64,000 nucleotides of DNA from Carnegiea gigantea (lineage: Eukaryota > Streptophyta > Magnoliopsida > Caryophyllales > Cactaceae). The notes beneath the pieces are model-generated. The model was not told the DNA's origin and ran no database searches. It saw only the letters and a program-made list of their open reading frames with translations. Position numbers and translations under genes: made by a program. The stretch spans positions 10,001-74,000 of the forward strand of contig JAKOGI010001581.1 in NCBI GenBank assembly GCA_029747015.1, read 5' to 3'. This document shows positions 6,240-56,426 of this stretch, in pieces. The stretch's first letter is position 1. Each line of letters opens with the position of its first letter.

Positions 6240-8030
6240 AGAGAGGGAAGGGGTGAGTTTTTGCATAGATTCTCTAAAGGAAATGCTAAGCTAATCCTAC
6301 TGCTGGGGTTGATGGAAAATTTTCAGAGCAACTTTAGGGGTGCCTATTTTGAGACTAGTACTCTTTCTTGCTCGGTGATTAGACCCGACAAAAATTGATG
6401 CGATCCCAAAATTCAACCTGAATCTGCCCTAAAATTTTAGATTTTAAATACGATATTTTTTGATCCGAATCTAAAACAAATCGAACCTAAAAATCCATAA
6501 ATTTTTGAATCAAACCCAACCCGAATCCGAACATACCCGTTCGACCCGAATATTATATACTTGCTTTTTATTTTTTTTATTTTTTTCCTCTTAACAATAA
6601 TAATTTTTCATCATAACGAATCGTTTAGAGGGACGTTATACAATTATCACATCTATTTGCAAATTAGATAATGGATCTCGTTTTTTCCCATAAAACAACG
6701 TCATATACAACTTATAAATGGTACAATTTTAGAAAATGGATATGAAACAACTCTAATATAAAGAAAAACAATTTAGAATTAGATAAGTATTGAAAATGTA
6801 CGAGTCATGACATTATATTCTTGGTAAAATGTCTCATCGCATTTTAAATAAGATTATTCTATAATAATCTAAAATTTTGATTTTATAATTAATATATAAT
6901 TATAATATCTTACGCGTATATAATGTTCTTTCGTTTGGATTTCTTCTAATTAGTCTCGAATCTAATGCAATGTTGGGCAATGGACCAACTTATGTTCGTG
7001 TTAAGATCGACGTACTAATAAAGCATGTTTGATTAGGTAATGCTAGGTTAATTAACGAAACATCAAATTATTAAACGGGCCATTAACGAGTCGAACCGCT
7101 TCACTCGTTAACACGCCTTAGATGGGCCGACCCATGAATTACCCGATCAATTATTAATATTTTAATATACGGGTCAACGCATTCAAACGTAACTCATTGT
7201 CCACAGCACATGAATTTCATATATCATGTTGAAAAGTTTGGATATTTTTGATATTCTTTGAAAAAATTACAATTACAATGTTTGTTCATAAATATAGACA
7301 ATTTTAAGTAATAAATATGCCAAATTTTGATTTGATAAAAAAAAAGAAATAATTCACTAAAAAGGCACTTCAAACCCGTTGGGTTGATCCGAAACCTGTA
7401 AAACTGAAATACGCCCGCCCGTATTTTACCCGAACTCGAAATACACCCGATCCGTATTTTACCCGAACCCAAATTCACCCAATCCGTATTTGACCTACCT
7501 GTCTAAATTGACAGGTCTATCAGTGATTGCTGTTTTTGTCTGGGTAGTTTTTTTACATCTTTGCCCATATGTTGTTGTCCCCATCTCTTTGGGGATAGAA
7601 GTGTATAGATTTTTCATACTATCATCATCTAAATAAGTGAGTCAATTTGGGTATATATCATATCATATTTTAGTTCAAGTGATATTTTACGTCAGTTTGG
7701 TTTGGATCGATGAATTTCAGTTCGGATTGACTTTAGGTCAATCAATTTTTGGTCCAATATGCTTATCATGCAAAATAATCAGCTTTGTAAAAATCTCCGA
7801 GTCGGGTATGATTCGATTCGGGTCAATTTAATTTTGGGTCCACTTTCAAATGAGCTTATTTCGGATGCCAGATCAGGTATGGGTCTGGGTTGTTCTGGTC
7901 AAGTTTCGGGTCTCGATAAGTTCTATTAGATTTATCATCATCAAATCTGATTACAAAATCGCACATATAGTGATTGGCTGATTGCCCATGAGAATATTAA
8001 AACCACGTTCCCTTAAGCTTATTTTTTACT
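6240..8030. other. Intergenic DNA with decayed repeats
   Basis: No gene is visible. Segments rich in CCCGA/TCGGG motifs (about 6370-6545, 7380-7500 and 7640-7930) resemble the inverted-repeat elements seen at 10.97, 15.6 and 18.1 kb, but I could not place their ends. Confidence 0.5.
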
Positions 8031-30955: not shown

Positions 30956-31335
30956 GTTACCATCTTAACATGGTTAAAGCACTAAACGTTACTTCAAACC
31001 TTGTCGAACACGTATGGGTTAAACAACCATTGCCCACCTTTGGCATGTACCCAACTGAAAACCAATGACTACCATCCTCAACATCATCCCCATTGAAGAC
31101 GTTCAGCATGTATAACCCCTACTCGCAGCATAATAACATTGCAATCTTGAATTTTATATGGAGGTATATGATATGAATTTTCTTGCGAGCTCTAGAAGCT
31201 CAAACTCTAAACCCTATATTTGAAAGTGGCAGACATGGAAAATCAAACCATGGTTTGGCTTCAAAATGGTAAAGCTCAACAAGCATCTACTTAATTTGGT
31301 TGGTGGCGATGACAACACTAAGAGATGTGATAGCT

Positions 31336-31804
31336 GGGGCTGTAACAAACCAGAGCGGGCATGGAAGCCCTTGGATCCAACTCTGTCAAAGCTCGACTCA
31401 GGCTTGAGCAAAACAAAGTTCGAGTCGAGCTCGAGTCGGATCGAAAGTACACCGAATCGAGCCCGAGCCTAATGAGGCTCTGCTTAACTTAACTGGGCTT
31501 AGTTTGGCTTGATTTAACTCAATTAATTCATTTTTTTCTTATATGCACTGTTGTAGAAGGCATGAAATTATTGCTGCAATGCATAAAATTTTATTTCAAT
31601 CCGTGTATCTTGAATCTAATGCAAAAATCAAGAATTTAGCTTGCATCATATATAGGCTCAAATTTGAAAACTTTTTCACTAAAAACAAACAACAAAAAAA
31701 GATTATCAAGTCGAGCTCCGAGCTAACACTATACATTCAAGCCCGAGCCTAAACTTGATAGGCTCAGTTAGCTTCAAGCTGAGCTCGAGCTCGTTTATAG
31801 CCCT
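31336..31804. mobile_element. MITE with GGGGCTGTAACAAAC / GTTTATAGCCCT ends
   Basis: The ends are imperfect inverted repeats. Subterminal GAGCTCGAGTCGG-like motifs occur on both sides, with an AT-rich centre. Non-coding. Confidence 0.6.
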
Positions 31805-32076
31805 AGAACTGGCAGCTATGCAATTGAAAGGGAAGGGAACACAAACGACGAGAGAGTAATTATCCTTTGGAGTAGGTGATGATGACGAGATAGAAGAAAG
31901 ACAACAATGGAGATTGTACAAGAAAAAGGTAAGTCAATATAGGTGTCAAGTCGGGTCGGTGTTTCGGTAGTTTTCGAATTGATGTGACTTGTTTTGTCTT
32001 TTTGTGCCAACTTTCCTCAATTGTCGCCGCAAAGCTGAAATTATTTTGTAAATTTTTTTAAGGTGTTAGTTCTAAC

Positions 32077-32440
32077 TATTCTTCTTCATCAGTGTCGTAT
32101 GTTATTTAAGAACTGTTCATATTCATATTTGGTTAATACCATACAGTATATTTAAAAGTTTTTTCTAATAGAGCAATATTATCTTTTGATAAAGTTATTG
32201 TTATAGGATGAACTCGTTTGGGTATGGTTGATAAATAGTTTAACCTTTTTTTTTTTTTATAGTGGTTTAACAAATTTTGCCTAAGACTTCTAGGGGTTAA
32301 ATCAAAAGATCTTAAATAGTCTCATGCTCTTTCTTGAGTATAGTATTTTAGTTCTGGTATATTAAAACTTTGTCCAGCTACATAGTTACCTTTTCTGTCT
32401 AGTTTCAGTTAGATTGTAATATGTTTTTAAATAAATTCAT
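32077..32440 (-). pseudogene. Caulimovirid small ORF 1 downstream of primer site, left arm
   Basis: About 120 codons beginning shortly after the primer-binding site and ending in an acidic D-E-E-E tail. No known domain is recognised. Broken by stop codons and an A-run length change. It matches 46704-47087 on the right arm. Confidence 0.6.
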
Positions 32441-32487
32441 TGTTTTAGAGTGAAACTATAGTTTTAATTACTTTGTTCAAGGTCTAG

Positions 32488-32499
32488 GCTCTGATACCA
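32488..32499 (-). promoter_or_regulatory. tRNA-Met primer-binding site, left arm
   Basis: On the minus strand this reads TGGTATCAGAGC, a full 12-base match to the initiator tRNA-Met site that defines position 1 in caulimovirid maps. Confidence 0.9.
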
Positions 32500-32991
32500 T
32501 TTATAGGGGAGTTGAATGGCTTTTATGAACGAAATGGTAAAACCATTTGTCTAATCAATTAGGTGATTAATTAGGTTATTCACACAAAGAGATCTATCAA
32601 ATTTTATCAATGATACTCGGATACTAGATTATCAAATAAAGCTTTCAACTTAATATCATATAATTCTATTAAAACAAGATTGAATCAAAGAAATTATACC
32701 TTCAAGAGTTGGATCTGTCTTACTCCTTCGCGCTCGTCTTACTCCACCCTGACGCGAAACTTACCTACTCATTCAGACCTTCTCTTTCTCCTTGATAGTA
32801 CTTTCTCTTTGATCAAAGTTGTAATAACAAAATTATAGATACAAAGTTTTGAGAAAGGATTTCTCTCTTATTTCATTGATAATTGTTCTGCTTTCCCTAA
32901 AGAGAGTAAATCAGAACATTTTTTGAGAGATATATTACAGAGGAAAATTTTCTCTTCCAAATGCCGATACTTCTACTGAAATCGGCTAATT

Positions 32992-32999
32992 TATTTATA
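32992..32999 (-). promoter_or_regulatory. Viral TATA box, left arm
   Basis: TATAAATA on the minus strand, about 500 bases upstream of the primer site and just after the transactivator-like ORF. The same box lies at 46144-46151 in the right arm. The place matches that of the pregenomic promoter in caulimovirids. It directs transcription away from the palindrome centre. Confidence 0.65.
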
Positions 33000-33206
33000 G
33001 AGGAGGGAGTGCGCTATGATATAAGCGCTTACATTATTAGAAATCTAAGAAGATAAGATTTATGATAAGATTTACAGATAAGACTTCACTGTTCTTGATA
33101 AGGTAGCTTAATCTTTATTGTCTTGTAGTATCAGCAAAGATAAGAGTTGATAAGATTGTGGTCCCTTATGTCTCACATCGTAACAGAATGACTATACAAG
33201 AAAAAT

Positions 33207-34304
33207 CTACTTCTTTTCTTTGTCTTGTTCTGCCTTGTAGAGTTCAGCAAATTTGGTGCGTACAGCTGGATTGCCTAGAAATTTCTTAGGGTCCAGTGAA
33301 TAGCTAAAGTCAAAAAGTTTTTCATCAACTTCCACATTTTCAGCTCCTTCAGTAGTAACTAGAATGAGATTATTGTCATAGTACAAAGTTCTTGCTCCTT
33401 TAGTCATTAATCGCTCGCTTTGGCATTTGATGGCGAGAGCGCCTGTTGAACGTTTATAGTTGATCTAGACTTTGACAAAAAGGGGAGTTTTGTAGTGTTT
33501 ATGTTTGTCAGCAGAAACAGTAGGGATTTTGGTAGTTGATCCAGCTTTTGTAACATGGGTGATTTCGACTAGGTGAATAGAAGGGTAGATAATTTCTTTA
33601 TCTTTTTCAGGAGAGATTGTAAAGAATTGAAGGCAAATATATCCTTTGTTGAATTGCTTAATAGCATATTTAAAATTGGCTGAAAAATTTTGTAGTTCGA
33701 TGAGAATGAGGCTTGGGTAAAGATAATTTAGATAACCATAAGTAAAGAGTTCAAAAATAATATCAGGTTTTGCTTTATTGAAAGCAAGGATTTGGGGAAA
33801 AACTGAATCCCTTGGGTTATAATAGAGTTCAGGTAAATCAGAGATCTTCTGGTAAGCAAGCATTGTTGCTTTATAATAGTTTTTGTAAAAGGAGTCTGAT
33901 AGATCAGTAGTTCGAATGCCAGTATTTTGAATAACTGGTCTTGAAGCTAATAGTTTAGCTTTTAATTGTTGCTTCTCTTTCTCTTCTTCAGAGAGGTGGT
34001 TGGAACCGTTTCCCTGATTTGGTCAAAAGGAGAGTTTAGAAAGTTCAGATTGGACTTTTGTCAAATCCATTTTTGAAGAGTTTAATTTAAGTTGTTCGAT
34101 AGTTCGATGGAAATATGTTGTTAGTTCTCAAGCTTTTCCAAGATCGGCTCGGAGATCTACAATGATTTCTTCAATAGCTTCAATTTTTTCATTAACAGCT
34201 TCATAGTATTCGTTAACATTGATCAGAATGTCTTCAAAGTTCTGGATTAGCTTAATATTGTCCACTTGTTCCATTGGCACTTTGCCTTTGTCCGTTGAAC
34301 TCAT
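33207..34304 (-). pseudogene. Transactivator/viroplasmin-like ORF of the endogenous caulimovirid, left arm
   Basis: The ORF of about 365 codons starts at an ATG overlapping the 3' end of the RNase H frame. It has a predicted coiled-coil N-terminus (repeated Glu/Ile/Leu heptads), a central domain containing LFTYGYLNYLYPSL and a basic C-terminus ending EQDKEKK. Its place, last before the large intergenic region, and its size fit the transactivator/viroplasmin of caulimovirids, which forms inclusion bodies and allows reinitiation on the polycistronic RNA. Identification rests mainly on position. Several in-frame stops (for example CGA to TGA changes) break it, though 33465-33863 is still open. 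Confidence 0.6.
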
Positions 34305-36173
34305 ATTCTCTTGTTAAATAGTCTACAATAAAGTTATTTTTTCCTGCAACATGCTCATATACAGTATTAAACTAAGATAAAAATAATTGCCATCAATGTA
34401 ATTTGCGCATGTGAGGTCCATTGTCTAAAGCTTGTTTTACAAAAGTAGTTGCTGCTTGGTTATCTATTAAAACTTTAAATGGCTTAGGTAATAAAAAGAG
34501 TCTCCACTTTGTACTTCCTCTAATAATAGCTAAGAGTTCCTTTTCCATAGTATTATAATTTTCTTCACATTCAGAAGAAGTTCCACTATGATAACCACAA
34601 ATTTCATTTAAATCTGTCTTCAAAACTGCTGCCCATGTATTGTCAGATGCGTCTGTTTGGAGAATTAAGTTATCTTCAGGTTCAAGGAGTCTAAGACTGG
34701 GAAGTTGTTGACATTCCTCTTTTAATTTCTTAACAATTTCTATATGTTTTTCTGGTCAACCAAGAGTATTGTTTTTTTCAAGTAGACTTTGCAAATCTTT
34801 TTTCTTCTTTGCTAAGTCTGGTATATAAGAAATAGCATAGTTAAATAGTCCTAAGAAGCCTTGAATTTGTTTCTTTGTTCATAGTTGGTCTGGATATTCC
34901 ATGATTTTTCGAGAGATATGTGGTTGTAAGCTGATTCCATTTATACCGACTTCAAAGCCTAAAAATTCAATTTTTTCTTTTTCAATCATAGCTTTTTTCT
35001 CACTAAGGCAGATACCTTTAATTGCTATTTCAAGAAATGTGTTAAGATGGTTTCAATGTTCTTCTAAAGCTTCTGAACTTATTAAAATATCATCTACGTA
35101 GACAACAAGAAAACTATTAAGATGTTTAAACGTATTGTCCATTCGTTGTTGAAAGATTCTTGGTGCATTTTTTAGTCCAAAAGGCATAACAATCCATTCA
35201 TAAAAGCCTTGAGGAGTACTAAAACCTGTATATTTAATACTTGTTTCTTTCATTTTAATGTGCCAAAAGCCAGACTTACAATCAAATTTTGAGAAGAATT
35301 TTCTGTTTTTACAAGGTTAATTAGTACTTCTTTGTTGGGTGGAAAATAGTTATCTGTTTTTGTAAACTAGTTTAATTTTTTATAGTTGATAACCATTCTA
35401 GCCTTTCGTCTTCTTCTTTCTACTTCGTTAACTACCATAATTAAAGGCTGGAGAAGAGTATGCTCCATTAGATGGTTTGATTAGTTTGTTTTCTAACAAT
35501 TCTTTTATTTGTATAGAAAATCCTTTGATATCTTATTCAGAGTTTAGCATTGGTTTTTCTTTGATATAAAGTTCTTATGCGAGTTCTATCTTAGTTCGAG
35601 GATGTTCAGGTTTCTAAAATTGCAATGGATTTTCAGAACAAATTCTCTTTAGTTTGCTAAGAGCTCATCTTTCTTGATTATATTAACTGTAAAAGTAGGT
35701 TTTTGGGCTTGTATTTGAAGTGCGATTTGTTCATAACCATGTTCACTACGCTTCGCGCGTACTCTGTAAGGTTGTTTGACAGTGGGTATTTTTAAGGTGT
35801 GACCACATTTTGTAGTTAAATGGACAGTATACGGTGCCTGAATAAATTTGGTAAATTGTTTTAGGAAATCATTTCCTAATAAGATATCATAATCAGAGTT
35901 ATACTGTAAAACAGTGGGTATAGTGAGGATTTTGTCACCTAAAATAATAGAAACATTATTCTGAACCAAATCTAAATAGGTAGGAATAGGATGAACACCT
36001 TTGATTCTAATTTTATGATCATTTGGGAGCTTATCCCATTTCAGAAGTAAAAAGTCCTGAAAGAAAGTTACTTCGGATCCTGTGTCAATCAAATCAGTAG
36101 TAGTAATGTCTAGTTCTTTGACAGTCACATCTATATATGTAAGAATGGGTATTTCAAGTTGCTTCATAGTCAT
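34252..36173 (-). pseudogene. Protease-RT-RNase H polyprotein of the endogenous caulimovirid, left arm
   Basis: About 640 codons, the usual size of caulimovirid pol. A retropepsin domain is open at 35649-36173 with catalytic DTGSE and flap-distal LLGNDFL. The reverse transcriptase follows with GFYEWIVMPFGLKNAP and the catalytic YVDD at 35089-35100. RNase H has LQTDASD, a MEKELLAI glutamate helix and IDNQAA. There is no integrase. The ATG overlaps the stop of the upstream ORF (ATGA type). Breaks include a TAG (35634-35636), a TAA (35533-35535), a frameshift at 35436-35447 and TGA codons at 34879-34881 and 34393-34395; all of these are also in the right arm. Confidence 0.88.
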
Positions 36174-37455
36174 TGAAGAATAACGGTAGTGTGTTGATTC
36201 ACAAGAGTTATACGAGTAGGACCAATCTCATAGTTAGTATACTGATCAAGGAAATTCATTCCTAAAAGTATATGATAAAATTCATTTTTTATGGAATGAT
36301 CAATGTAGCAATCAAATTCTAATAGAGTAGAATTAGGAGCTTTCATCATTATTCTAGAGATTTGATTTAGAGTTGCTCGCTGACCATTGTAGGTAACAAA
36401 GTTATATTCTGATGCTGTTGAGACTGCTATGGGTAAATGTATACAATGGCTTTGGGATGCGCCAGTGTCTATCAAGATTTTATTAGAAATCCAATTTTGT
36501 CCATTAAAGTATTCCAATTTTACTTTGTATGTGCTACTTTGAGTAGTTGTCAGTAAAGGAAGTTTAGATCTAGGGATAGTTGTTGTACTATAACTTCTTG
36601 TTAGAATGGGTTGATTTGCTACTCGTATTCCTTTTTCTGTATAAGAAAGTCTAGATGCTTGATAGCTGATTGATGCTTCATCTTCTTCAACTAATTGAAA
36701 GTCTGTAAATGCAGGTATTTTGGCTTCTTACATAGGAGGAGAGATAATAGTACTGATGATTGAAAAGATTGAATCGACAGTTATTTTCCCTGTTTGTCTT
36801 ATATCTTTTATTGGAAAGTTAGTATTGGAAAAAATGTATAGGCCTCTATAATAAAAGGATAATGCATCATTTCCTGGTTGTAATCTAATGTCTGTTAAGA
36901 GTTTAAATTGCAGATTTAAAGTATCTTCTATATTTTTACTTTGCAGAGTTACCGAATAATTTGTATAGCATTCAAAAATTAATTTTTTATAAATTAGATT
37001 TATTTGTAAAATTCCTAGATGGCTGTTCTGTATATTTCGAAGTCTTTGATCATGTAATGATGGAATTATAGGTGAATTGATACCTTCTTTAAAGCAAGCA
37101 TTTACAGCAATTTGTATTCCTTGTAAATGGACATACTCAATTAGTTTTCTATCTTTAGTGGAAATTTCTGCTAAAAATTTATCAATTATCTCTTGAGTCA
37201 TTAATCTTAATCGGATGTTTCCCTGTAAATGTTGAATTTTAGCTTGTTGTTCTGTAGTATAAAGTTTAAAATACCTTATTAATTTTCGAGTTAGAAAATC
37301 ATCTAGTTTTTTCATAAAATTTCAAGGGTCTTTCAAAGATAAATCAGTTGCTATAATTTTTTCATAAAGTTTTTGGTTGAAAGTATGATTCCAGTATAAT
37401 TTTTATTATTTTCTTGTTCTCGTTGTTGCATAATTTCTGTGTCTTCAGTACTCAT
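36170..37455 (-). pseudogene. Movement protein with C-terminal retropepsin-like domain, endogenous caulimovirid, left arm
   Basis: The ORF starts at an ATG overlapping the coat protein stop (ATGAGTACTGA). Its centre (36728-37315) fits the 30K movement protein superfamily: a YVHLQGIQI strand, the conserved aspartate in LHDQRL near 37050, and a downstream LIYKKLIFEC strand. A linker leads to a domain open at 36170-36517 with DTGAS and LLGMNFLDQY, that is, a retropepsin signature. The ORF ends in a TGA overlapping the next ATG. A CAA to TAA change at 36728-36730 separates the two parts here; in the right arm that codon is intact and the two parts are joined. A small deletion near 37390 shifts the 5' part. 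Confidence 0.8.
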
Positions 37456-38937
37456 CCTCTGTGTCTGAATAGTTTTCTGTTTCTGATGTACTTGTTTCAG
37501 TTTCTGAGCTGATAGGTTCATAACAGCTTGAAATTGCTTCATGTATACTAGAGGTTATTGGATATAGTTTGTCTTGAATTTCTTTGAATTCTTCTGAGAA
37601 GAGTTTTACTACATTTTCTTTTCTTTTGTTACAATCAATAGATTTGTGTCCTATTTCTCCACAATTGCAACGTTGACAAGCAGTAGGTTTTTTATTTCTC
37701 TTATCATATCTATTTTGTAGATTAAAGTTCTCTTGAGTTAAATTTTCATGTCGAAAATGTTTACTACTTTTTCATGGTTTATTTACTGATTGATTTAGTT
37801 TTTGCTTTTTTAGTCTTTGTTCTTTTGGGCATAAATTTTTTCTTTTTAGAAAAATTTTTCTTTGGAGTTTTTCTAGGAGTAGTTTTCTTGATATATTGTT
37901 TTGGAGTTCTCTTTCGTTTAGGTCTGAAATTTGGATAGTTTTCACAACCATATTGTCCTGATTCTGTAACATTTTCACAACACAGAGTTACCTCTTTAAT
38001 ATACTTTCGTCTATTTTCTTGTAAACAAAGTTGCATCATTTCTTTATTTATTAGAGTTTGAATTGCGGCTACTGATCTAAAGACAGTATGATTTTTCACA
38101 TAAATTTCAAATTTGTCTGAAAAGTATTTATTCCATGGATGAGGGAATTTATTTAATAATAGTTGGATATAGGGTTCTTGATTTTCTGTAGAATCACAAA
38201 GCTCATGATAGTATTTATCAAATTCATAAAAGAAACTTTTATAGCTGCATAGATTACAAATTCTTAAATTAGTTAGTTTGTATAAAGCGTCTTTTTTCCC
38301 TTCAAGTCTATTTAATTCTGGCTGTTCAATAAATTCATATCCTTGAAATTGTCCTATCAAATATTTTTCAAAGGTCCATACACCATGTTCAATGGATATT
38401 CCAAGATTTCTTTTCATATCTACTTCTATCAAATTTCTTATAGCTAAAGATAATCCATTATACCAATAGAGTATGTTTCCTTGTAGAGAGTAGATTATTA
38501 AATTATAGATAGCATTAACATCTCTATCTTCTACAGCATAAGTTGGTTCTTGCATTAAAGATAGTATTATAGAACTTCTTCAAGTGTCTAAAACAGTTCT
38601 TTTGTCAGTTACACAATCTATATTTAAAAAATATCCCTATACTGGTACTGGTTCTAAAAGTAAAGGGTTTTTTTAATTTGAATTCTTCATTGAAAGTACT
38701 CACTTTTATTGGATGTCTCCTTTTGTTTTGAAAGTTCTCTGTATGTTTATTCTTTTGGATTGAATTATTTCTAAAAGGATTAGAGGGTTCTCCAGTTTCA
38801 TAGTTATTCGGATTATTATTTCCTATATTTCCTTTGGGTGTTCCTGATTGCATGGTTACTTGTTTAACTAGTTCAGTCAATTGTAGATTTTCAAAGCCAT
38901 TTAGCAATTCTTTAATAGCTTTATTATATTCTCCCAT
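37445..38937 (-). pseudogene. Coat protein of the endogenous caulimovirid, left arm
   Basis: About 497 codons from the ATG at 38937 to the TGA at 37445, close to the size of other caulimovirid coat proteins. The middle (37779-38555) is open for 258 codons, rich in aromatic and charged residues, and runs into a Lys/Arg-rich tail. A zinc knuckle CQRCNCGEIGHKSIDC lies at about 37630-37690; its spacing C-x2-C-x-C-x4-H-x4-C is a variant of the caulimovirid CP signature C-x-C-x2-C-x4-H-x4-C. A Ser/Thr/Glu-rich acidic C-terminus follows. Frameshifts and stops occur on both sides of the open middle. Confidence 0.8.
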
Positions 38938-38939
38938 TA

Positions 38940-39264
38940 TTAGCTTCTTTCTGCTTCTTGTTTTTGTTTGGCTTTCAGTGGCCATCTTTCTTCAATAGTT
39001 TTTTGAATAGCTTCTTCTTGTTCCTTTAAAATGTTATTTTGATAACATTCAATATATTTAGCATCATCATTGTTGGGGTTGATTTTATCAGGAAGTTTAA
39101 TTTCTATAGGAGTATATTCTCTTTTTTGTTTGGGTTTTAACATTCCTTCAATAGTTAAATTTATAAGTTGCATCTGCATCACTAGTTGTTTAATAGAGTT
39201 ATTTATTTCTCTAATTTCTTTTTTTTATAGCTTTTAATTCATTTTCTAGTTGTAGAAAGCTCAT
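38940..39264 (-). pseudogene. Small coiled-coil ORF 3 of the endogenous caulimovirid, left arm
   Basis: About 108 codons ending just before the coat protein start. The N-terminus has heptad-like Leu/Ile spacing and could be a coiled coil. By place and character it may be the virion-associated/DNA-binding protein, but no diagnostic motif is seen. One frameshift at a T run near 39222. Confidence 0.5.
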
Positions 39265-39270
39265 TGTGTA

Positions 39271-39582
39271 TTAATCTTCATCATTAAACCAAAATTCTGT
39301 ATCAAACTGATTTAAGTTGTTATCATCATTGTTATCTATATTTTTACAAATTTCTAGACAAGTTCTTCTTTCTTCTTCATAAATTAAGAGGTCTAGTCTA
39401 TCTTCATTTAATCAAATTATTTCTTTAGAGCTATTATTTTTTCTTAATTGTTCAATTTTTTGTATATAAAATTTTTCTTTTAGTAATATTTCTTTTTTCA
39501 AAAAAGTTTTGTATAAGTTGTGCACAGATTCACAATTGCTTTGGGTCATTATTTTTAGTTTGGGCATTTCAGGTTTCTCCAT
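39271..39582 (-). pseudogene. Small ORF 2 of the endogenous caulimovirid, left arm
   Basis: About 103 codons with a Lys-rich N-terminal half and a strongly acidic C-terminus (NNDDNNLNQFDTEFWFNDED). An in-frame TGA replaces the TGG of the right arm. No known domain. Its stop lies seven bases before the next ATG. Confidence 0.5.
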
Positions 39583-39654
39583 TTAAAAATTTAAGCTTTG
39601 CAATTTTGGAAAACTTTGAGGGCTAAAGAACAAAACTATCTTTTTCACAAAAAT

Positions 39655-39881
39655 TTAAGAAATATTACCAAAAGGAAAATTTTATATACAAAAAATTGAA
39701 CAATTAAGAAAAAAATAATAGCTCTAAAGAAATAATTTGGTTAAATAAGGATAGACTATACCTCTTAATTTATGAAGAAGAAAAAAGAACTTATCTAGAA
39801 ATTTATGAAAATATAGATAACAACGATGATAACAACTTAGATCAGTTTGATACAGAATTTTGGTTTAATGATGAAGATTAA
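39655..39881 (+). pseudogene. Small ORF 2, right arm, 5'-truncated
   Basis: Matches 39271-39490 of the left arm but its start codon region has been lost at the palindrome centre. The acidic end is conserved. Confidence 0.5.
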
Positions 39882-39887
39882 TAAACA

Positions 39888-40215
39888 ATGAGTTTTCCGC
39901 AATTAGAAAATGAGCTAAAAGCTGTAAAAAAAGAAATTAGAGAAATAAATAACTTTATTAAACAACTAGTGATGCAGATGTAACTTATAAATTTAACTTT
40001 TGAAGGAATGTTAAAATCTAAATAAAAAAGAGAATATATTCCTATAGAAATTAAACTTCCCTATAAAGTCAACCATAACAGTGATGATGCTAATATATTG
40101 AACGTTATCAACATAACATTTTAAAGGAAAAAGAAGAAGCTATTCAAAAAACTATTGAAGAAAGATGACTACGAAAGCCAAAGAAAAACAAGAAAAAGCA
40201 GAAAGTAGCCAATAA
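39888..40215 (+). pseudogene. Small coiled-coil ORF 3, right arm
   Basis: Counterpart of 38940-39264. Several stops and frameshifts, more decayed than the left copy. Confidence 0.5.
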
Positions 40216-41702
40216 TAGGAGAATATAATAAAGCTATTGAAGAATCGCTAAATAACTTTGAAAATCTATAATTAACTGAACTAGTTAAATAAGTAAACAT
40301 GCAATCAGGAACACCCACAGGAAGTGTAAGAAGTAATAATCCGAATAACTATGAAACTGGAGAACTCTCTAGTCCTTTTAGAAATAATTCAGCTTGAAAG
40401 AATAAATATACAGAGAACTTTCAAAATAAAAGGAGACATCCAATGAAAGTGAGTACTTTCAGTAAAGAATTCAAATTTAAAAACTCTTTACTTTTAGAAT
40501 CAGTACCAGTATGGTGATATTTTTTAAACATAGATTGTGTAACTGACAAAAGAACTGCTTTAGACACTTGGAGAAGTTCTATAATACTATCTTTAATGCA
40601 AGAACCAACTTATGCTGCAGCAGATAGAGACGTTAATGCTATCTATAATTTAATAATCTACTCTCTACAAGGAAAGATACTCGTGGTATAATGGATTGTC
40701 TTTAGCTATAAGAAATTTGATAGAAGTAGATGTGAAAAGAAATCTTGGAATATCCATTCAGCATGGTGTATAGACCTTTGAAAAATATTTAATAGGATAA
40801 TTTCAAGGGCATGAATTTATTGAAGGGCCAGAATTAAATAGACTTGAAGGGAAAAAAGAAGCTTTGTACAAACTAACCAATTTAAGAATTTGTAATATAT
40901 GTAACTATAAAAGTTTCTTTTGTGAATTTGATAAATACTATTATGAGCTTTATGATTCTACAGAAAATCAAAAACCCTATATCCAACTATTATTAAATAA
41001 ATTCCCTCATCCATGGAATAAATACTTTTCAGACAAATTTGAAATTTATGCGAAAAATCTACTATCTTAGATCAGTAGCCGCAGTTCAAACTCTAATAAA
41101 TAAAAAAATGATGCAACTTTGTTTACAAGAAAATAGACGAAAGTATATTAAAGAGGTAACTCTGTGTTGTGAAAATGTTACAGAACCAGGACAATATGGT
41201 TGTGAAAACTATCCAAATTTCAGACCTAAATGAAAGAGAACTCCAAAACAATATATCAAGAAAACTACTTCTAGAAAAACTCCAAAGAAAAAATTTTCTA
41301 AAAAGAAAAAATTTACGCCCAAAAGAACAAAGACTAAAAAAGCAAAAACTAAATCAATCAGTAAATAAACTACAAAAAAGTAGTAAACATGTTTGACACA
41401 AAAATTTAACTCAAGAGAACCTTAATCCACAAAATAGATATTATAAGAGAAATAAAAAACCTACTGCTTGTCAACATTGGAATTGTGGAGAAATAGGACA
41501 CAAATCTATTGATTGTAACAAAAGAAAAGAAAATGTAATAAAACTCTTCTTAGAAGAATTTGAAGAAATTCAAGATGAACTATATCCAATAACCTCTAGT
41601 ATACATAAAGCAATTTCAAGCTGTTATGAATCTATCAGCTCAGAAACTGAAACAAGTACATCAGAAACAGAAAGCTATTCAGACACAGAAGATGAGTACT
41701 GA
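40216..41702 (+). pseudogene. Coat protein of the endogenous caulimovirid, right arm
   Basis: Counterpart of 37445-38937. The start codon is ATA instead of ATG, and the frame is broken at several places, with open pieces at 40864-41070 and 41039-41233. The zinc knuckle at about 41475-41522 reads CQHWNCGEIGHKSIDC, one cysteine having changed to tryptophan. Confidence 0.8.
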
Positions 41703-42983
41703 AGACATAGAAATTATGCAACAACAAGAACAAGAAAATAATAAAAATTATACTGGAATCATAACTTTCAACAAAAAACTTTATGAAAAAATTATAGCAA
41801 CTGATTTATCTTTGAAAGACCCTCGAAATTTTATGAAAAAACTAGATGATTTTCTAACTCGAAAATTAATAAGGTATTTTAAACTTTATACTATAGAACA
41901 ACCAGTTAAAATTCAACATTTACAGGGAAACATCCGATTAAGATTAATGACTCAAGAGATAATTGATAAATTTTTAGCAGAAATTCCTACTAAAGATAGA
42001 AAACTAATTAAGTATGTCCATTTATAAGGAATACAAATTGCTGTAAAGGCTTGCTTCAAAGAAGGTATCAATTCACCTATAATTCTATCATTACATGATC
42101 AAAGACTTCGAAATGTACAGAACAGCCATATAGGAACTTTATAAGGAAATCTAATTTATAAAAAATGAATTTTTGAATGCTATCCGAATTATTCGGTAGC
42201 TCCGCAAAGTAAAAATATAGAAGTACTTTAAATCTGCAATTTAAACTCTTAACAGACATTGGATTACAACCAGGAAATGATGCATTATCCTTTTATTACA
42301 GAGGTCTATACATTTTTTCCAATACTAACTTTCCAATAAAAGATATAAGACAAACAGGGATAATAACTATCGATCCAATCTTTTCAACCATCAGTACTAT
42401 TATCTCTCCTCCTATGCAAGAAGCCAAAATATCTACATTAATAGACTTTCAATTAGTTGAAGAAGATGAAGCATCAACTAGTTATCAAGCACCTAGACTT
42501 TCTTATACAGAAAAAGGAATACGAGTAGCAAATCAACCCATTCTAACAAGAAGTTATAGTACAACAACTATCCCTAGATCTAAACTTCCTTTACTAACAA
42601 CTACTCAAAGTAGCACATACAAAGTAAAATTGGAATACTTTAATGGACAAAATTAGATTTCTAATAAAATCTTGATAGACACTAGCGCATCCTAAAGCCA
42701 TTGTATACCTTTGCCCATAGCAGTCTCAACAGCATCAGAATATAAATTTGTTACCTACAATGGTCAGCAAGCAACTCTAAATCAAATCTCTAGAATAATG
42801 ATGAAAACTCCTAATTCTACTCTATTAGAATTTGATTGCTACATTGATCATTCCATGAAAAATGGATTTTATCATATACTTTTAGGAATGAATTTCCTTG
42901 ATCAGTATACTAACTATGAGATTGGTCCTACTCATATAACTCTTGTGAATCAAGACACTACCATTATTCTTGAACGACTATGA
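41692..42983 (+). pseudogene. Movement protein with C-terminal retropepsin-like domain, right arm
   Basis: Starts at the ATG overlapping the coat protein TGA. Open from 41692 through the N-terminal part of the 30K domain to 42027, then broken by stops and a frameshift. The linker and retropepsin-like domain are in one frame from 42414, continuing directly from the movement protein end. This shows the two were fused. The DTG motif is damaged (DTSAS) and a TGG has become TAG at about 42655. The ORF stop TGA (42981-42983) overlaps the next ATG. Confidence 0.78.
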
Positions 42984-44905
42984 AGCAACTTGAAATACCC
43001 ATTCTTACATATATAGATGTAACTGTCAAAGAACTAGACATTACTACTACTGCTTTGATTGACACAGGATCCGAAGTAATTTTCTTTCAGGACTTTTTAC
43101 TTCCGAAGTGGGATAAGCTCCCAAATGATCGTAAATTAGAATAAAGGTGTTCATCCTATTCCTACTTATTTAGATTTGGTTCAGAGCAATGTTTCTATCA
43201 TTTTAGGTAACAAAATCCTCACTATACCCATTGTTTTACAGTATAACTCTGGTTATGATATCTTATTAGGAAATGATTTCCTGAAACAATTTGCCAAATT
43301 TATTCAGACACTGTATACTGCCTATTTAACTAGAAAATGTGGTCACACCTTAAAAATACCCACTCTCAAACAACCTTACAGAGTACGCGTGAAGCGTAGT
43401 GAACATGGTTATGAACAAATCGCACTTCAAATACAAGCCCAAAAACCTACTTTTACAGTTAATATAATCAAGAAAGATGACCTCTTAGCAAACTAAAGAG
43501 AATTTGTTCTAAAAATCCATTGCAATTTTAGATTCCTGAACACCCTCGAACTAAGATAGAACTCACACAAGAACTTTATATCAAAGAAAAACCAATGCTA
43601 TACTCTGAATAAGATATCAAAGAATTTTCTATACAAATAAAAGAATTGTTAGAAAATGGACTAATCAAACCATCTAATGGAGCATACTCTTCTCCAGCCT
43701 TTAATTATGGTAGTTAACGAAGCAGAAAGAAGAAGACGAAAGGCTAGAATGGTTATCAACTATAAATAATTAAACCAGTTTACAAAAACAGATAACTATT
43801 TTCTACCCAATAAAGAAGTACTAATTAACCTTGTAAAAATCAGAAAGTTCTTCTCAAAATTTGATTGTAAGTCAGGCTTTTGGCAGATTAAAATGGAAGA
43901 AATGAGTACTAAATATACAAGTTTTAGTACTTTTTAAGGCTTTTATGAATGGATTGTTATGCCTTTTGGACTAAAAAATGCACCAAGAATCTTTCAACGA
44001 CGAATGGACAATGCGTTTTAACATCTTAACAGTTTTCTTGTTGTCTACATAGATGATATTTTAATAAGTTCAGGAACTTTAGAAGAACATCGAAACCATC
44101 TTAACACATTTCTTGAAACAGCAATTAAAGAAGGCATCTGCCTTAGTGAGCAAAAAGCTATGATTGAAAAAGAAAAATTGAATTTTTAAGCTTTGAGGTC
44201 AGTATAAATGAAATCAGCTTACAACCACATATCTCTCGAAAAATCATGTAATATCCACATCAACTATGAACAAAAAAGCAAATTCAAGGTTTCTTAGGAC
44301 TATTAAACTATGCTAGTTCTTATACACCAGACTTAATAAAGAAGAAAAAAGATTTACAAAGTCTACTCAGAAAAAACAATACTCTTGGTTCGACAGAAAA
44401 ACATACAGAAATTGTTAAGAAATTAAAAGAGGAATGTCAATAACTTTCCAGTGTTAGACTCCCTGAACCTGAAGATAACTTAATTCTCCAAACAGACGCA
44501 TATGACAAAATATGGGCAGCAGTTTTGAAGACAGATTTAAATGAAATTTGTGGTTATCATAGTGGAACTTTTTTTGAACGTGAAGAAAATTATAGTACTA
44601 TGGAAAAGGAACTCTTAGCTATTATTAGAGGAATTACAAAGTGGAGACTCTTTTTATTACCTAAGCCATTTAAAGTTTTAACAGATAACCAAGTAGCAAC
44701 CACTTTTGTAAAACAAGCTTTAGACAATGGACCTTACATATGCAAATTGCATTGATGGCAATTATTTTTATCTCAGTTTAATGCTGTATATGAGCATGTT
44801 GTAGGAAAAAACAACTTTATTGCAGACTATTTAACAAGAGAACATGAGTTCACAGACAAAGGCAAAGTATCAATGGAACAAGTGGACAGTATTCAGCTAA
44901 TCTAG
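42980..44905 (+). pseudogene. Protease-RT-RNase H polyprotein, right arm
   Basis: Counterpart of 34252-36173. The retropepsin motif reads DTGSE, the RT catalytic site YIDD (44046-44057), and RNase H is open at 44525-44755. A frameshift near 43140 breaks the protease. Stops at 43529-43531, 43610-43612, 44267-44269 and 44753-44755 and the frameshift at 43699-43710 coincide exactly with those of the left arm. Confidence 0.88.
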
Positions 44906-45942
44906 AACTTTGATGACATTTTGATCAATGTTAATGAATACTATGAAGCTGTTAACGAAAAAATTGAAGTTATTGAAGAAATCGTTGTAGATCTCCAAGC
45001 CGATCTTGGAAATGCTCGAGAACTAACAACATATTTCCATCGAATTATTGAACAGCTTAAATTGAACTCTTTAAAGATGGATTTGACAAAAGTCCAATCT
45101 GAACTTTCTGAACTCTCCTTTCGACCAAATCAGGGAAACGCTTCAAACTCCCTCGCAGAAGAAGAGAAAGAGAAGCAATAATTAAAAGCTAAGCTATTAG
45201 CTTCAAGACCAGTTATTCAAAATACTGGTATTTGAACTATTGATCTGTCATACTCTTTTTACAAAAACTGTTATAAAGCAACAATGCTTGCTCACTAGAA
45301 AATCTCTGGTTTAGCTGAACTCTATTATAACCCAAGGGATTCACTTTTTTCCCGAATCCTAGCTTTCAACAAAGCAAACCCTGATATCGTTTTTGAACTC
45401 TTTACTTATGGTTATCTAAATTATCTTTACTCAAGTCTAAGTCTCATCGAACTACAAAATTTTCCAGCCAATTTTAAATATGCTATTAAGCAATTCGACA
45501 AAGGATATATTTGCCTTCGATTCTTTATAATCTCTCTTGAAAAAGATGAAGAAACTATCTACCCCTCTATTCACCTAGTCGAAATCACCCATGTTATAAG
45601 AACTAGATAAACTACAAAAATCCCTACTGTTTCTGCTGAGAAACATAAACACTACAAAACTCCCCCTTTTGACAAAGCCTGGATCAACTATAAACATTCA
45701 ACAGACGCTCTCCCCATGAAATGCCAAAGCGAATGATTAATGACTAAAGGAGCAAGAACTCTGTACTATGACAATAATCTCATTCTAGTTACTACTGAAG
45801 GAACTGAAAATGTCTCAGTTGGTGAACAACTTTTTGACTTTAGCTATTCACTGAAGCCTAAGAAATTTCTACGCAGTCTAGCTGTACGCACCAAATTTGC
45901 TGCCACAAGGCAGAACAAGACAAAGAAAAGAAGCAAATTTTT
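44844..45942 (+). pseudogene. Transactivator/viroplasmin-like ORF, right arm
   Basis: Counterpart of 33207-34304. A one-base deletion just after the ATG puts the start out of frame with the rest; the coiled-coil part is open at 44921-45181. Later stops and a small deletion near 45900 break the C-terminus. Confidence 0.58.
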
Positions 45943-46143
45943 CTTGCAAAGTCACTCTGTCACGATGTGAGACATAAGGGATCACAACCTTATAAACTCT
46001 TATCTTTGCCAACACTGCAAGATAATAAACATGAAGCTAACTTATCAAGAACAGTGAAGTCTTATCTGTAAATCTTATCAGAAATCTTATCTTCTTAGAT
46101 TTCCAATGATGTAAGTGCTTATATCATAGCGCACCCCCTCCTC

Positions 46144-46151
46144 TATAAATA
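46144..46151 (+). promoter_or_regulatory. Viral TATA box, right arm
   Basis: TATAAATA after CACCCCCTCCTC, preceded by CCAATGATGTAAG. Layout resembles caulimovirid pregenomic promoters. A polyadenylation signal AATAAA follows at 46267-46272, consistent with a terminally redundant viral transcript. Confidence 0.65.
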
Positions 46152-46266
46152 AGTTAGCCGATTTCAGTAGAGGTATCGACATTTGAAAGAGAACAATTTT
46201 CCTTTGTAATATATCTCTCAAAAAATGTTCTAATTTCCTCTCTTTAGGGAAAGGAGAATAATTATC

Positions 46267-46272
46267 AATAAA
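46267..46272 (+). terminator. Candidate viral polyadenylation signal, right arm
   Basis: AATAAA about 120 bases after the TATA box. In the left arm the corresponding bases read AATGAA. Confidence 0.5.
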
Positions 46273-46644
46273 ATAAAAGAGAAATCTTTTCTCAAAACTT
46301 TGTGTCTATGATTATGTTATTACAACTTTGATCAAAGAGAAAGTACTATCAAGGAGAAGGAGAAGGTCTGAACGAGTAGGTAAGTCTCGCGTCAGGGTGG
46401 AGTAAGACAAGCGTGAAGGAGTAAGATAGATTCAACTCTTGAAAGTATAATTTCTTTGATTCAATCTTGTTTTAATAGGATTATATGATATTAAGTTGAA
46501 AGCTTCATTTGATAATCTAGTATCTGAGTATCATTGATAAAATTTGATAGATCTCTTTGTGTGAATCACCTAATTAATCACCTAATTGATTAAACAAATG
46601 GTTTTACCCCTTTTTCTATAAAAACTACTCGACTCCCCTATAAA

Positions 46645-46656
46645 TGGTATCAGAGT
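46645..46656 (+). promoter_or_regulatory. tRNA-Met primer-binding site, right arm
   Basis: TGGTATCAGAGT, 11 of 12 bases of the initiator tRNA-Met site; the last base is changed relative to the left arm. Confidence 0.88.
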
Positions 46657-46703
46657 CTAAACCTTGAACAAAGTAATTAAAACTATAGTTTCACTCTAAA
46701 ATA

Positions 46704-47087
46704 ATGGATTTATTTAAAAACAGATTACAATCTAATTCTAAACTAGACAGAGAAGGTAACTATGTAACTGGACAAAGTTTTAATATACCAGAACTAAAAT
46801 ACTATATTTAAGAAAGAACATGGGACTATTTAAGATCTTTTCGTATAACCCCCAGAAGTCTTAGGTAAAATTTGTTAAACCACTATAAAAATAGGTTAAA
46901 TTATTTATCAATCATATCCGAACGAGTTCATCCTATAACAATAACTTTATTAAAAGATAATATTGTTCTGCTAGAAAAAACTTTTGAATATACTGTATGG
47001 TATCGACCAAACATGAACATGAACATGAACATGAACATGAACATCAGCACCGCTCAAATAACATACAACACTGATGAAGAAGAATAG
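46704..47087 (+). pseudogene. Caulimovirid small ORF 1, right arm, with hexanucleotide expansion
   Basis: About 127 codons with two internal stops. Near the end a run of five ATGAAC units (about 47013-47042) codes for alternating Met-Asn; the left arm has only one or two such units at the same place. Function unknown. Confidence 0.6.
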
Positions 47088-48342
47088 TTAGAACTAACAC
47101 CTTAAAGAAATTTGCAAAATAATTTCAGCTTCACGGGACAATTGAGGAAAGTTGGCACAAAAAGACAAAACGAGTCACATCAACACGAAAACTGCCCGAA
47201 ACACCGATCCGAATTGACACCTATAAAGTCAATGACAAAGAAACCAATATGAATGGAGGACAGAGTAAGCCAAGTCTATTGCAAAAAGACATTGTAAAAT
47301 AGGGGTAAAATTGTCAGTTTAAAAAATCGGTATTGAATTAGTTTTCATTTATTTATTAAGCAGAATTAATACTCTTTAGCCATTACTCTTAGGGCTCATC
47401 CAATGGTGTGCTCATGCGAGGAGAGAAGCTGATGTGCGGCGTGAAACACCTCGGGACAATGCAGCAATAGACTCAGGCTCACGCTGTGCATAAATTTTTT
47501 TGGGCGTTTAGCGCCCTGAAACAACGTCATTTTGGGGTGCTGACCACCCTTTTTTTGACTTCTTGTCTGGGCCCAAAAAAGGAAAAAGACAGAGTTAACA
47601 TTTGGGATTTTTAAATGTTGGGTCTGTGGGTTTGAATGTTGGGCTGTGTTTTGGGCAGAGAGACAACGTCCCTTTGTCTTTTTTTGGGGTAAAATTTGCC
47701 TACAAATTTCCAAAATTGTTTCACAAAATTCACACCTACAATTTTATCTCATCATCTTTCCAAAATTTGTATAATGTTCTCTGTCGTGAGGCATTTTAGC
47801 AACAAAGAAGTGAAGAAATTAGTAAGAATTTATATATTCAATTGTTTTAAATTCTTTATTTTGTACATTAAAATTGATAATTTTGGTTTCTAACATTGTT
47901 GTTGTTTGTATTTGTAGAGAAGTTTGAGTTGCTCTTTTTAATCAACAAACAAGTGAAGAAAATTGTAAGTTGCAATTTAATTTTTAATGTGTTGGAAAAT
48001 ATTATTATGTGGTAGTTGATATGCTAAATGTTAAAAAGATTATATTTTATTAATATAGTAGCAATGAGATAATCAATATAGTGGATAGAATAATTTGAAA
48101 TGATTAAATGTTATTTGTGTAAGTATGAGATAATTAAATTTTGATTGTATGTTGTGATTATATGTTATTAACTTAGTAATATGATTAAATGTTTTAGGAA
48201 ACACTATGATAATAATGTTAATAAATACATGGTAATATGATTACTAAAATATTTTTGGGCATGTTAATGAAGTTAGGATAATTCAATTGGTAGTTGTTGA
48301 AATGAATGTATTTGTAGAATATGTTTGAAATAATTGCGAGAA

Positions 48343-50007: not shown

Positions 50008-51180
50008 ATGGACTATAATACTCCTCCAACCATTATGAGCTTACTTGAGTGTGACAATTCATCCCAAACTAGGGGGAAGAGTGCTACGCCAATTCCCGCA
50101 CACAATCCCCATGTGTTTTACCCCCCATATCCACCACAAAACTACCACCATTATTCGCATCATTCATATTACCTACCCCAACTTTGCTCGAGGATTCCGT
50201 GTGGTTCAAGTCAGAATCCTCGACCATATCCTCCCCATATTACCCCCCGACACATAACGAACCTTTTAATGTGCACGGGACTGAATACCAGTACTACCCT
50301 CTTTACTATCCTCCACCACCTCCTCATTCAAATTACCTTTTTGCGGAGAGCAACTCCACCCCCTCAGCCACACCAATGGGATCACTAGTCGGGCTGGGGC
50401 AGTCTGAGACAAACATTGAGGTAAGTACTGATGAGGGGGCATGGAGGAAGTAATGGCAGGTACTATTTGGTGGTGCAAAAAAAGTGCACAGTTGTCGAAG
50501 ATCAACGGCTAATATAGGCATGGTTAATGTAGGTACAGATTCTATTGTCGAGGCTGATCAAAAAAAGTGTAGCTTCTGGAATAGAGTAGCCTCAACTTTG
50601 AACGAGCACCGTCCACAAGGGGCATCGACACGTACTTTAAAGACATGTAACAGCCGATGGCTTCGATGTGCCCCAATCATCAACAAATGGACAAGTATTA
50701 TGTTAGAAGTGGAACATAATAATCACAGTGGGTGGAATGATGATAAGATTCTGCAAGAGCCCACAAATTGTAAACCGAGTGTACTGGGAAGAAGTTTGAG
50801 TTAGAGTATTGGTATGAGATACTCAAGGACCAACCGAAATAGAGGGCGATATGTGATCCACCTAAGTCAGGGTCAGGATTGTCGAAAAGGTCTAGCCCCG
50901 ACACTGAAGAGGTAGGAGATGAAGGTGCCAGTGGGAGTGAAAGACCCAAGGGATGGACAGCCGCGAAGAAAAAGCTGAAAGGAAAAGCGAACAACACTGT
51001 CGTTGATCTAGTCACAACTGAGCTGAAGAAGTTAAAGAGTGCCAACACTGAGATGAATAAATATTCAAAGATTTCATCATCATAACAAAATAAGAAAAAG
51101 CTCAGAAGATGATGATGAGGGAACAAAAGCTGAGAAGAGAGGAGGATAGAATAATGATGATGGACACCTCAACAATGACT
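50008..51180 (+). pseudogene. Harbinger ORF1, Myb/SANT-like DNA-binding protein, broken
   Basis: The N-terminus is Pro/Tyr/His-rich and open from 50008. After a frame change the trihelix-like part at about 50540-50760 contains SFWNRVASTLNEHRP, RTLKTCNSRWLRC and EVEHNNHSGWNDDKIL, the pattern of the Myb/SANT-like protein that accompanies plant Harbinger transposases. A further frame change leads at 50879 to a SKRSSPDTEEVGDEG linker and the RPKGWTAAKKKLKGKANN segment typical of NAM-associated C-terminal domains. ORF1 proteins bind the transposon ends and assist nuclear import of the transposase. Frameshifts and stops make it non-functional. Confidence 0.8.
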
Positions 51181-51689
51181 CCTAAATAAGCAGCTTACTA
51201 TGAGCAAAGGAAAGAAGAAATAATGCAAGGAGAGTAGGGCACTCATCATCAACTCAGTAATATGTCTTTCCTTCCCCCTAATTATATAGATTACAAGACT
51301 ATATCATATTATGTTGTAATAGCTTACTACATCACTTTTGTTTTCCATGTGTTGTATTAGACATGAGTTTGGTATAATCATGCTATGATTTGAACTTATG
51401 AAAATGGCATGTCTATTATTGTTTAATAAAATGATTGCTCTTCTGTACATTACCATATAATCATTATTATATTACGGTCATTTGTAATAGATACTTTTAA
51501 TGTGGAACCGCTACCTAATGAGGAAGAATCATCACCCTCCTCATCTTCATCAGATGATGAAGTCATGATCCCCGTCATGGGGGCTTATCTCTAACATCAA
51601 CAATGACTGCAACATCAAATGATGTTCCTTCTACAACTTAGGCAAGCAATAACAAAGATGATGCTATCAACATCTACGCCTCGGATGAA

Positions 51690-56387: not shown

Positions 56388-56389
56388 AT

Positions 56390-56401
56390 TGGTATCAGAG
56401 C
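56390..56401 (+). promoter_or_regulatory. tRNA-Met primer-binding site of the Copia-type element
   Basis: TGGTATCAGAGC two bases after the LTR end CCAACA. Confidence 0.9.
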
Positions 56402-56426
56402 TAGTACTATTTTTTAAAGACTAGTT

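What the first reader, a model, noticed from the sequence alone, without database searches (positions are those of the whole stretch)
31931..47234. 15-kb palindrome of two nearly complete endogenous pararetrovirus genomes
Seen: every landmark of the left arm (primer site, TATA box, transactivator-like ORF, RNase H, RT, two protease motifs, movement protein, coat protein, small ORFs) recurs in mirror order in the right arm, with arms of equal length (about 7.57 kb) and a 158-base asymmetric centre. The arms differ at roughly 5% in a sampled block, so a simple assembly fold-back is unlikely. Known: endogenous caulimovirids are often rearranged arrays. Inference: read-through transcription across the centre would give a long hairpin RNA, a strong potential source of small RNAs against related viruses.
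Basis: partly seen in the sequence, partly recalled or inferred. Interest (0 to 1): 0.87.

Follow-up and report, generated by a model that had tools for sequence, protein, structure and literature searches.

The report
Viral palindrome riding a transposon's ends
A 15.3-kb stretch of what looks like plant DNA is a palindrome of two mirror copies of one virus genome, likely already broken before it was copied, and its outer ends suggest that it likely jumped to this spot as a single transposon-like unit rather than being left here directly by infection.

Summary
Arms 31938-39494 (7557 bp) and 39657-47225 (7569 bp) match at 92.2% around a 162-bp loop. Each is a wendovirus-like endogenous caulimovirid.

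The arms come from one sequence, not two strains: dN/dS 0.91 (0.68-1.26), transition differences 188 against 189, relatives side 21 to 21. Two in-frame stops inside RT-RNase H are shared, so the source was likely already dead, unless later gene conversion spread them.

The outer ends look like a DNA transposon. Both arms stop at the same base beside an exact 8-bp repeat (AAGTCAAT; chance 0.2%). The right terminus matches 11 of 14 bases of one end of a separate hAT-like element at 6380-7519, but only 7 of 14 of its other end. I favour a giant fold-back, hAT-like element with virus genomes as arms. The published hAT TIR consensus is not met and a strict scan misses the palindrome, so membership is unproven.

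The hairpin idea is weakened, not excluded: viral promoters point outward. No plant genome was searchable, so copy number is unknown.

The parts
31931..31938 (+). left copy of 8-bp direct repeat AAGTCAAT (putative target-site duplication; its last T also pairs with the palindrome end)
   Evidence: chance of an 8-mer match within +-3 bp at random outside pairs 428 of 200,000
47226..47233 (+). right copy of AAGTCAAT
31938..32060 (+). left outer end, TATAGGTGTCAAGTCGGGTCGG..., TCGG cluster, GC 0.41 in the first 63 bp against 0.30 in the arm; probably not viral (inference)
47103..47225 (-). right outer end, TATAGGTGTCAATTCGGATCGG... (read inward)
31938..39494 (-). left arm, one nearly complete wendovirus-like sequence, coding outward
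39495..39656 (.). 162-bp asymmetric centre; 39495-39582 continues a reading frame of the left arm (MEKPEMPKLK...), the other 74 bp have no frame assigned
39657..47225 (+). right arm, mirror copy, coding outward
37448..38579 (-). coat protein region with zinc knuckle, in two broken pieces
   Evidence: zf-CCHC E 0.0059, 17.1 bits against a cut-off of 20.8; 7 relatives of the 37782-38579 piece
36731..37321 (-). movement protein piece
   Evidence: Pfam MP E 5.8e-27; 35 relatives
36173..36727 (-). first aspartic protease motif (LIDTGAS...ILLG), same frame as the movement protein, separated from it by one left-arm stop
   Evidence: PF13975 E 0.0088, below cut-off
35652..36227 (-). second aspartic protease
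   Evidence: Peptidase_A3 E 1.2e-11
35056..35316 (-). reverse transcriptase piece
   Evidence: RVT_1 E 7.2e-22; best solved relative 8r0s 'Enzymatic polyprotein' E 3.9e-26
34396..34755 (-). RNase H piece
   Evidence: RT_RNaseH E 8.4e-19
33468..34022 (-). ORF4-like piece by position, without known domain
32489..32499 (-). primer site TGGTATCAGAG, left arm
46645..46655 (+). primer site TGGTATCAGAG, right arm
32992..33002 (-). TATA box CTCTATAAATA, left arm, points outward
46141..46151 (+). TATA box CTCTATAAATA, right arm, points outward
6380..7519 (.). separate hAT-like element used as comparator: TIR 10 of 12, flanking 8-mers TCGGTGAT/TCAGTGAT

Best explanation
This 15.3-kb palindrome of two mirror copies of one wendovirus-like endogenous pararetrovirus likely arose by inverted duplication of a single chromosomal copy beside a DNA-transposon end, and was then likely moved here as one unit by a hAT-like transposase acting on its two matching ends. 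Steps shown: neutral, symmetric divergence of the arms from one source; two in-frame stops in RT-RNase H common to both; equal outer ends; flanking 8-bp direct repeat; loop continuous with the left arm. Steps inferred: that the stops predate the duplication; fold-back synthesis from the left arm through the 162-bp loop and back out to the transposon end, which would give both arms the same terminus; transposition in trans, since no transposase was seen inside; later decay of both arms for a few million years. Any hairpin RNA would need inward transcription from the host flank and is untested.
For: Homology ends at the same base on both sides beside AAGTCAAT/AAGTCAAT, chance 0.0021. The flanks show no further homology (scores 32 and 37 against a maximum of 39 in 100 shuffles). 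The right terminus TATAGGTGTCAATT matches the in-window hAT-like terminus TAGACCTGTCAATT at 11 of 14 in the same register; 10 of 127,974 positions, the query itself included, reach 11 of 14. TCGG/CCGA clusters (3 or more in 40 bp) occur in the arms only at these ends. One source: dN/dS 0.91 (bootstrap 0.68-1.26), 188 against 189 GC/AT transition differences, relatives agree with left at 21 and with right at 21 of 47 differing residues in MP and CP. Probably broken before: in-frame stops 34756 and 34879 in both arms, in a frame that reads as RT to RNase H. Loop continuous with left arm.
Against: The terminus does not match the published plant hAT consensus [T/C]AGNGNNG (PMC6027215, passages): TAGGTGTC meets 3 of its 5 fixed positions. 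A strictly symmetric TIR leaves a 7-bp repeat; the full 8 bp needs one T shared or lost, and for that reason the strict scan (43 hits; 22-33 in 6 Markov controls) does not list the palindrome at all. The looser scan lists it, but is not selective (30 hits; 12-23 in 8 controls). The comparator was found after the fact, its own repeat has one mismatch, and its other end agrees with the palindrome at only 7 of 14 bases (by eye). The 10-mer TAGGTGTCAA with one mismatch allowed is not enriched (4 matches, 4.9 expected). The two shared stops lie in the less diverged middle tract, so gene conversion between arms could have spread them after the duplication. Left arm plus loop is 7719 bp, about one 7.7-kb wendovirus circle (size from PMC9794742), so the outer end might still be viral intergenic DNA. 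No second copy or empty site could be sought (genome search did not complete).
Confidence: 0.47

Rival explanations
1. An endogenous copy became an extrachromosomal linear palindrome by fold-back copying to its own end, and host end joining put it into a staggered break; fill-in made the 8-bp repeat. No transposase took part.
For: Explains equal ends, shared stops and the repeat. A review names break repair as one of two widely held hypotheses for these viruses (PMC10377300, passages). The hAT consensus is not met.
Against: Leaves the in-register match to one hAT-like terminus and the TCGG cluster confined to the ends as coincidences.
Confidence: 0.26
2. Two like virus genomes joined head to head and integrated together during infection.
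For: Tandem and rearranged arrays are frequent for these viruses (PMC10377300, passages); each arm is about one genome long. Neutral, symmetric divergence would also follow if the two genomes were identical at entry.
Against: Shared in-frame stops in RT-RNase H suggest that the source was already dead, though gene conversion could mimic this. The outer ends lie about 0.6 kb past the primer site (561 and 580 bp), not at it, yet both arms end at the same base.
Confidence: 0.12
3. Host-kept antiviral locus: read-through across the centre makes a 7.5-kb hairpin RNA diced into 21-24-nt RNAs against related viruses.
For: Precedent in tomato and soybean as reported in a review (PMC10377300, passages). 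1797 of 7537 left-arm 21-mers are perfect in the right arm, longest perfect run 103. A consensus splice donor follows a possible short exon on the + strand at the left junction.
Against: TATA boxes point outward; the arms diverge as if neutral; no RNA data; the possible exon is a lead only.
Confidence: 0.1
4. Assembly artefact.
For: Palindromes are hard to assemble (general knowledge).
Against: 475 substitutions and 27 indels spread through the arms, a unique loop, and a target-type repeat at the borders.
Confidence: 0.03

Closest known systems
Wendovirus (proposed endogenous-only Caulimoviridae genus, PMC9794742; section 10 read whole, other passages)
   Same: Order coat/zinc finger, MP with first protease, second protease with RT and RNase H, ORF4 without known domain; two different protease domains; about 7.7 kb.
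   Different: Here two mirror copies in a palindrome; reading frames broken; RT phylogeny not tested.
hATpin (MITE-like hAT elements forming stable secondary structures; seen only as titles in the reference list of PMC12804786)
   Same: By its title, a hAT-type element that folds on itself.
   Different: 15.3 kb instead of a MITE, and the arms are a virus genome. Details of hATpin were not read.
Galileo, P-superfamily fold-back-like transposon (PMC4168063, passages)
   Same: Long TIRs extended by recruiting internal sequence; 7- or 8-bp target-site duplications.
   Different: Insect P superfamily; recruits its own sequence, not a virus.
Teratorn (piggyBac-herpesvirus fusion, PMC10175614, passages)
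   Same: Virus genome carried between transposon ends with a target-site duplication.
   Different: Teratorn is an animal element that carries its own transposase; this one is broken, palindromic and would be non-autonomous.
Tomato caulimovirid inverted repeats giving 22-nt siRNA (Valli 2023, not held; reported in PMC10377300, passages)
   Same: Inverted repeat of an endogenous caulimovirid.
   Different: Here near full length and bounded by a TIR/TSD-like signature; no RNA data.

Membership tests
Endogenous Caulimoviridae | Caulimovirid RT-RNase H, movement protein, zinc-knuckle coat protein | tested here: met
   zinc knuckle under its cut-off; RT piece closer to 8r0s 'Enzymatic polyprotein' (3.9e-26) than to 4ol8 (1.4e-16) or the Ty3-G chain 7q5b (4.7e-16)
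Endogenous Caulimoviridae | tRNA-Met primer site (sequence recalled) | tested here: met
   TGGTATCAGAG at 32499 (-) and 46645 (+); it also occurs at 2697 and 56390, at retrotransposon gag pieces
Wendovirus | Two aspartic protease domains, one with MP and one before RT | tested here: met
   PF13975 E 0.0088 (17.1 bits, under the 28.2 cut-off) with DTGAS and ILLG motifs; Peptidase_A3 E 1.2e-11. The paper names PF00077, not Peptidase_A3, for the second.
Wendovirus | Genome about 7.7 kb with ORF4 after RNase H | tested here: met
   arm 7557 bp, with loop 7719; piece 33468-34022 by position only
Wendovirus | RT falls in the Wendovirus clade | not tested
   no reference RT sequences at hand
hAT superfamily | 8-bp target-site duplication | tested here: inconclusive
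   AAGTCAAT exact on both sides, but it overlaps a strictly symmetric TIR by one base; the strict scan misses it
hAT superfamily | TIR consensus [T/C]AGNGNNG (PMC6027215) | tested here: not met
   TAGGTGTC, 3 of 5 fixed positions (compared by eye)
hAT superfamily | Subterminal repeated motif | tested here: inconclusive
   3 TCGG in the first 30 bp, the only such cluster in either arm; seven other clusters in the window; binding not shown
hAT superfamily | hAT transposase (autonomous members) | tested here: not met
   none in the Pfam scans of 10 of the 28 pieces listed and 6 of the 26 listed; it would be non-autonomous
siRNA-producing caulimovirid inverted repeat | 22-nt siRNAs from the arms | not testable with these tools
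   no small-RNA data

The most novel reading that the evidence does not exclude
A plant counterpart of virus-transposon fusions: a fold-back hAT-type transposon whose 7.5-kb arms are whole pararetrovirus genomes, so that a DNA transposase spreads ready-made viral hairpin templates through the host genome, independent of infection, and seeds antiviral siRNA loci wherever it lands beside an active host promoter.
Probability: 0.25. Interest if true: 0.85.

Novelty: new variant of a known kind. Interest (0 to 1): 0.66.

Why it matters
How endogenous caulimovirids enter and multiply in plant genomes is open: one review says that the mechanism of integration and propagation is unknown (PMC10175614, passages); another names break repair and LTR-retrotransposon machinery, and mentions a suggestion that a transposon-derived integrase is hijacked (PMC10377300, passages). 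A copy bounded by a TIR/TSD-like signature would point to a further route, carriage by a DNA transposon after the virus is dead, and would explain how near-perfect viral inverted repeats, the reported siRNA sources, arise and move. It is testable in any assembly of the species by searching for the terminal sequence.

Tried and rejected
Two diverged viral strains: rejected on dN/dS and polarity. In-place inverted duplication of a single insertion: it would be expected to carry the left host flank over in inverse, and one search finds no flank homology. Viral terminal redundancy (inner against outer end): score 31 against a maximum of 30 in 300 shuffles, full of gaps, so unresolved. Blind TIR+TSD scans: not selective (30 hits against 12-23 in 8 controls), and in the strict form without the palindrome. 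A direct search for the left terminal 60 bp elsewhere in the window: best score 34 against 28, 30 and 35 for three shuffled queries, so nothing. Relatives in viral contigs: none confirmed from three pieces. Text searches for TIR letters gave, in the listings shown, no plant hAT paper with such an end. No paper describing a caulimovirid inside a DNA transposon appeared in the listings; that covers only this library, those terms and the rows listed. On rereading I lowered the main confidence from 0.50 to 0.47 and raised two rivals slightly, because the strict scan misses the palindrome, the comparator's other end matches poorly, and gene conversion could explain the shared stops.
Full report
Observation. 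One inverted self-match covers 31938-47225 at 92.2% identity. The arms are 7557 and 7569 bp with a 162-bp centre. The 475 substitutions in 7507 aligned bases and 27 indels of 1-26 bp speak against a simple assembly fold-back. No N occurs in the window.

What the arms are. Ten left-arm and five right-arm stop-to-stop pieces were scanned separately with Pfam, one right-end piece more. Above cut-off are RNase H, RT, Peptidase_A3 and movement protein; a second aspartic protease and a zinc knuckle are below it. The RT piece matches 8r0s 'Enzymatic polyprotein' best (3.9e-26; that this is the cauliflower mosaic virus enzyme is recalled). The layout, movement protein with one protease and a second protease before RT, is that of the proposed genus Wendovirus, about 7.7 kb (PMC9794742, section 10 whole, other passages). 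Relative P0001 reads from movement protein into a DIGAS protease-like motif in one frame, though Pfam finds no protease in it. The first protease here scores 17.1 against 28.2 bits and is supported by its DTGAS and ILLG motifs. RT phylogeny was not tested.

Direction. The coding pieces, the TATA boxes (33002 -, 46141 +) and the primer sites (32499 -, 46645 +) face outward. Viral transcription would leave the palindrome, not cross its centre.

One source, likely broken already. Over ten left-arm pieces (1522 codons; two pairs of pieces overlap by about 50 bp, and the pieces were chosen as open on the left) dN/dS is 0.91, bootstrap 0.68-1.26; the right arm has 25 stops in those frames. Transition differences between G/C and A/T are 188 against 189, transitions 377 against transversions 98, and left-arm C or G in CG context differs about twice as often as in other contexts. 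Against relatives, MP residues side 9 left and 13 right, CP residues 12 left, 8 right, 4 neither and 1 without a relative, stops included. Two in-frame stops, 34756 and 34879, are in both arms, in a frame that reads as RT connecting to RNase H. The simplest reading is that a dead chromosomal copy was duplicated and both copies decayed alike. Caveat: the middle 3.9 kb, where both stops lie, is less diverged (189 of 3886) than the outer (189 of 2370) and inner (97 of 1251) parts, p 5e-7; if gene conversion between arms caused that, it could also have spread the stops later. With recalled plant rates of 5-15e-9 per site per year, 6.3% means roughly 2-7 million years (inference).

Ends. Both arms stop at the same base, and the flanks share nothing more. 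An exact AAGTCAAT flanks the unit; the 8-mer occurs 5 times on this strand of the window, two of them these. Random outside pairs share an 8-mer within 3 bp in 428 of 200,000 trials. The terminal 63 bp have GC 0.41 and 0.44 against 0.30 in the arm, but 5.2% and 2.4% of left-arm windows are as rich; they hold 4 and 5 CpG against 0.56 on average, but 1.9% of left-arm and 0.7% of right-arm windows also reach 4. TCGG/CCGA clusters of three in 40 bp occur in the arms only here, though seven other clusters exist in the window. At 6380-7519 lies a separate element with TIRs TAGACCCGACAA/TAGACCTGTCAA and flanking TCGGTGAT/TCAGTGAT. Of 43 strict-scan hits it is the only one with two or more such motifs at both ends, and none of 6 Markov controls has one; with one motif or more at both ends there are 3 hits against 0-3 in controls. 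The palindrome's right terminus matches that element's right terminus at 11 of 14 bases, the left terminus at 10 of 14, and the element's other end only at 7 of 14 (the last two by eye). The strict scan does not list the palindrome, because an exact 8-bp repeat and a symmetric TIR are out of step by one base. Eight base pairs is called a distinguishing feature of hAT elements (PMC4763223, passages); another paper gives 4-8 bp (PMC6027215, passages), whose TIR consensus is not met. So I say hAT-like and do not file it as a member.

Centre. On the left arm's coding strand an open frame starting MEKPEMPKLK runs from 39582 through the loop into the left arm. The right arm starts at 39657, which pairs with 39494. 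A loop continuous with one arm is what fold-back copying would leave (inference). The remaining 74 bp of the loop match nothing else in the window at E 0.1.

Mechanism. Favoured: fold-back synthesis copied one endogenous arm, with its transposon end, into a palindrome with two like ends; a hAT-like transposase then moved it in trans. Equal ends plus target repeat separate this from in-place duplication. Shared stops, with the caveat above, separate it from integration of a viral dimer. The closest rival is insertion of the same palindrome by end joining.

Limits. The window's genome could not be searched and no plant collection was at hand, so copy number, empty site and host remain unknown. 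That the host is a plant is inferred from caulimovirid, plant transposon and retrotransposon content.

Noticed in passing
window 6380-7519: 1140-bp hAT-like non-autonomous element with 10 of 12 TIR, 7 of 8 target-site repeat and CCGA/TCGG motifs near both ends.
   Followed up: yes
window 31907-31929: Possible short first exon (ATGGAGATTGTACAAGAAAAAG) followed by a perfect splice donor GTAAGT; the palindrome sits just inside the putative intron, so host transcription could read into it. MAGGTAAGT occurs twice in the window, both on the + strand.
   Followed up: partly
window 34338-38237 and its mirror: Middle of the arms less diverged (4.9%) than both sides (about 8%): possible arm-to-arm gene conversion.
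   Followed up: partly
window 39585-39659: 11-bp direct repeat AAAAATTTAAG at 39585 and 39649 bounds non-coding DNA at the inner side of the loop.
   Followed up: no
window 31335-31806: A second hAT-MITE-like sequence (GAGCTCGAGCTCGTTTATAGCCCTA end, resemblance recalled) lies about 130 bp left of the palindrome.
   Followed up: no
window 47010-47044: About six tandem AACATG units (5.8 copies) in the right arm, absent at the matching place of the left arm.
   Followed up: no
window 50843-59621: PIF/Harbinger-type pieces (Plant_tran at 52117 and 59322) around a copia-type gag at 56418.
   Followed up: partly
window 19264-20196: Ion-channel gene piece (Ion_trans_2 E 3e-34) on the minus strand; looks like a plant two-pore potassium channel (recall).
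   Followed up: no
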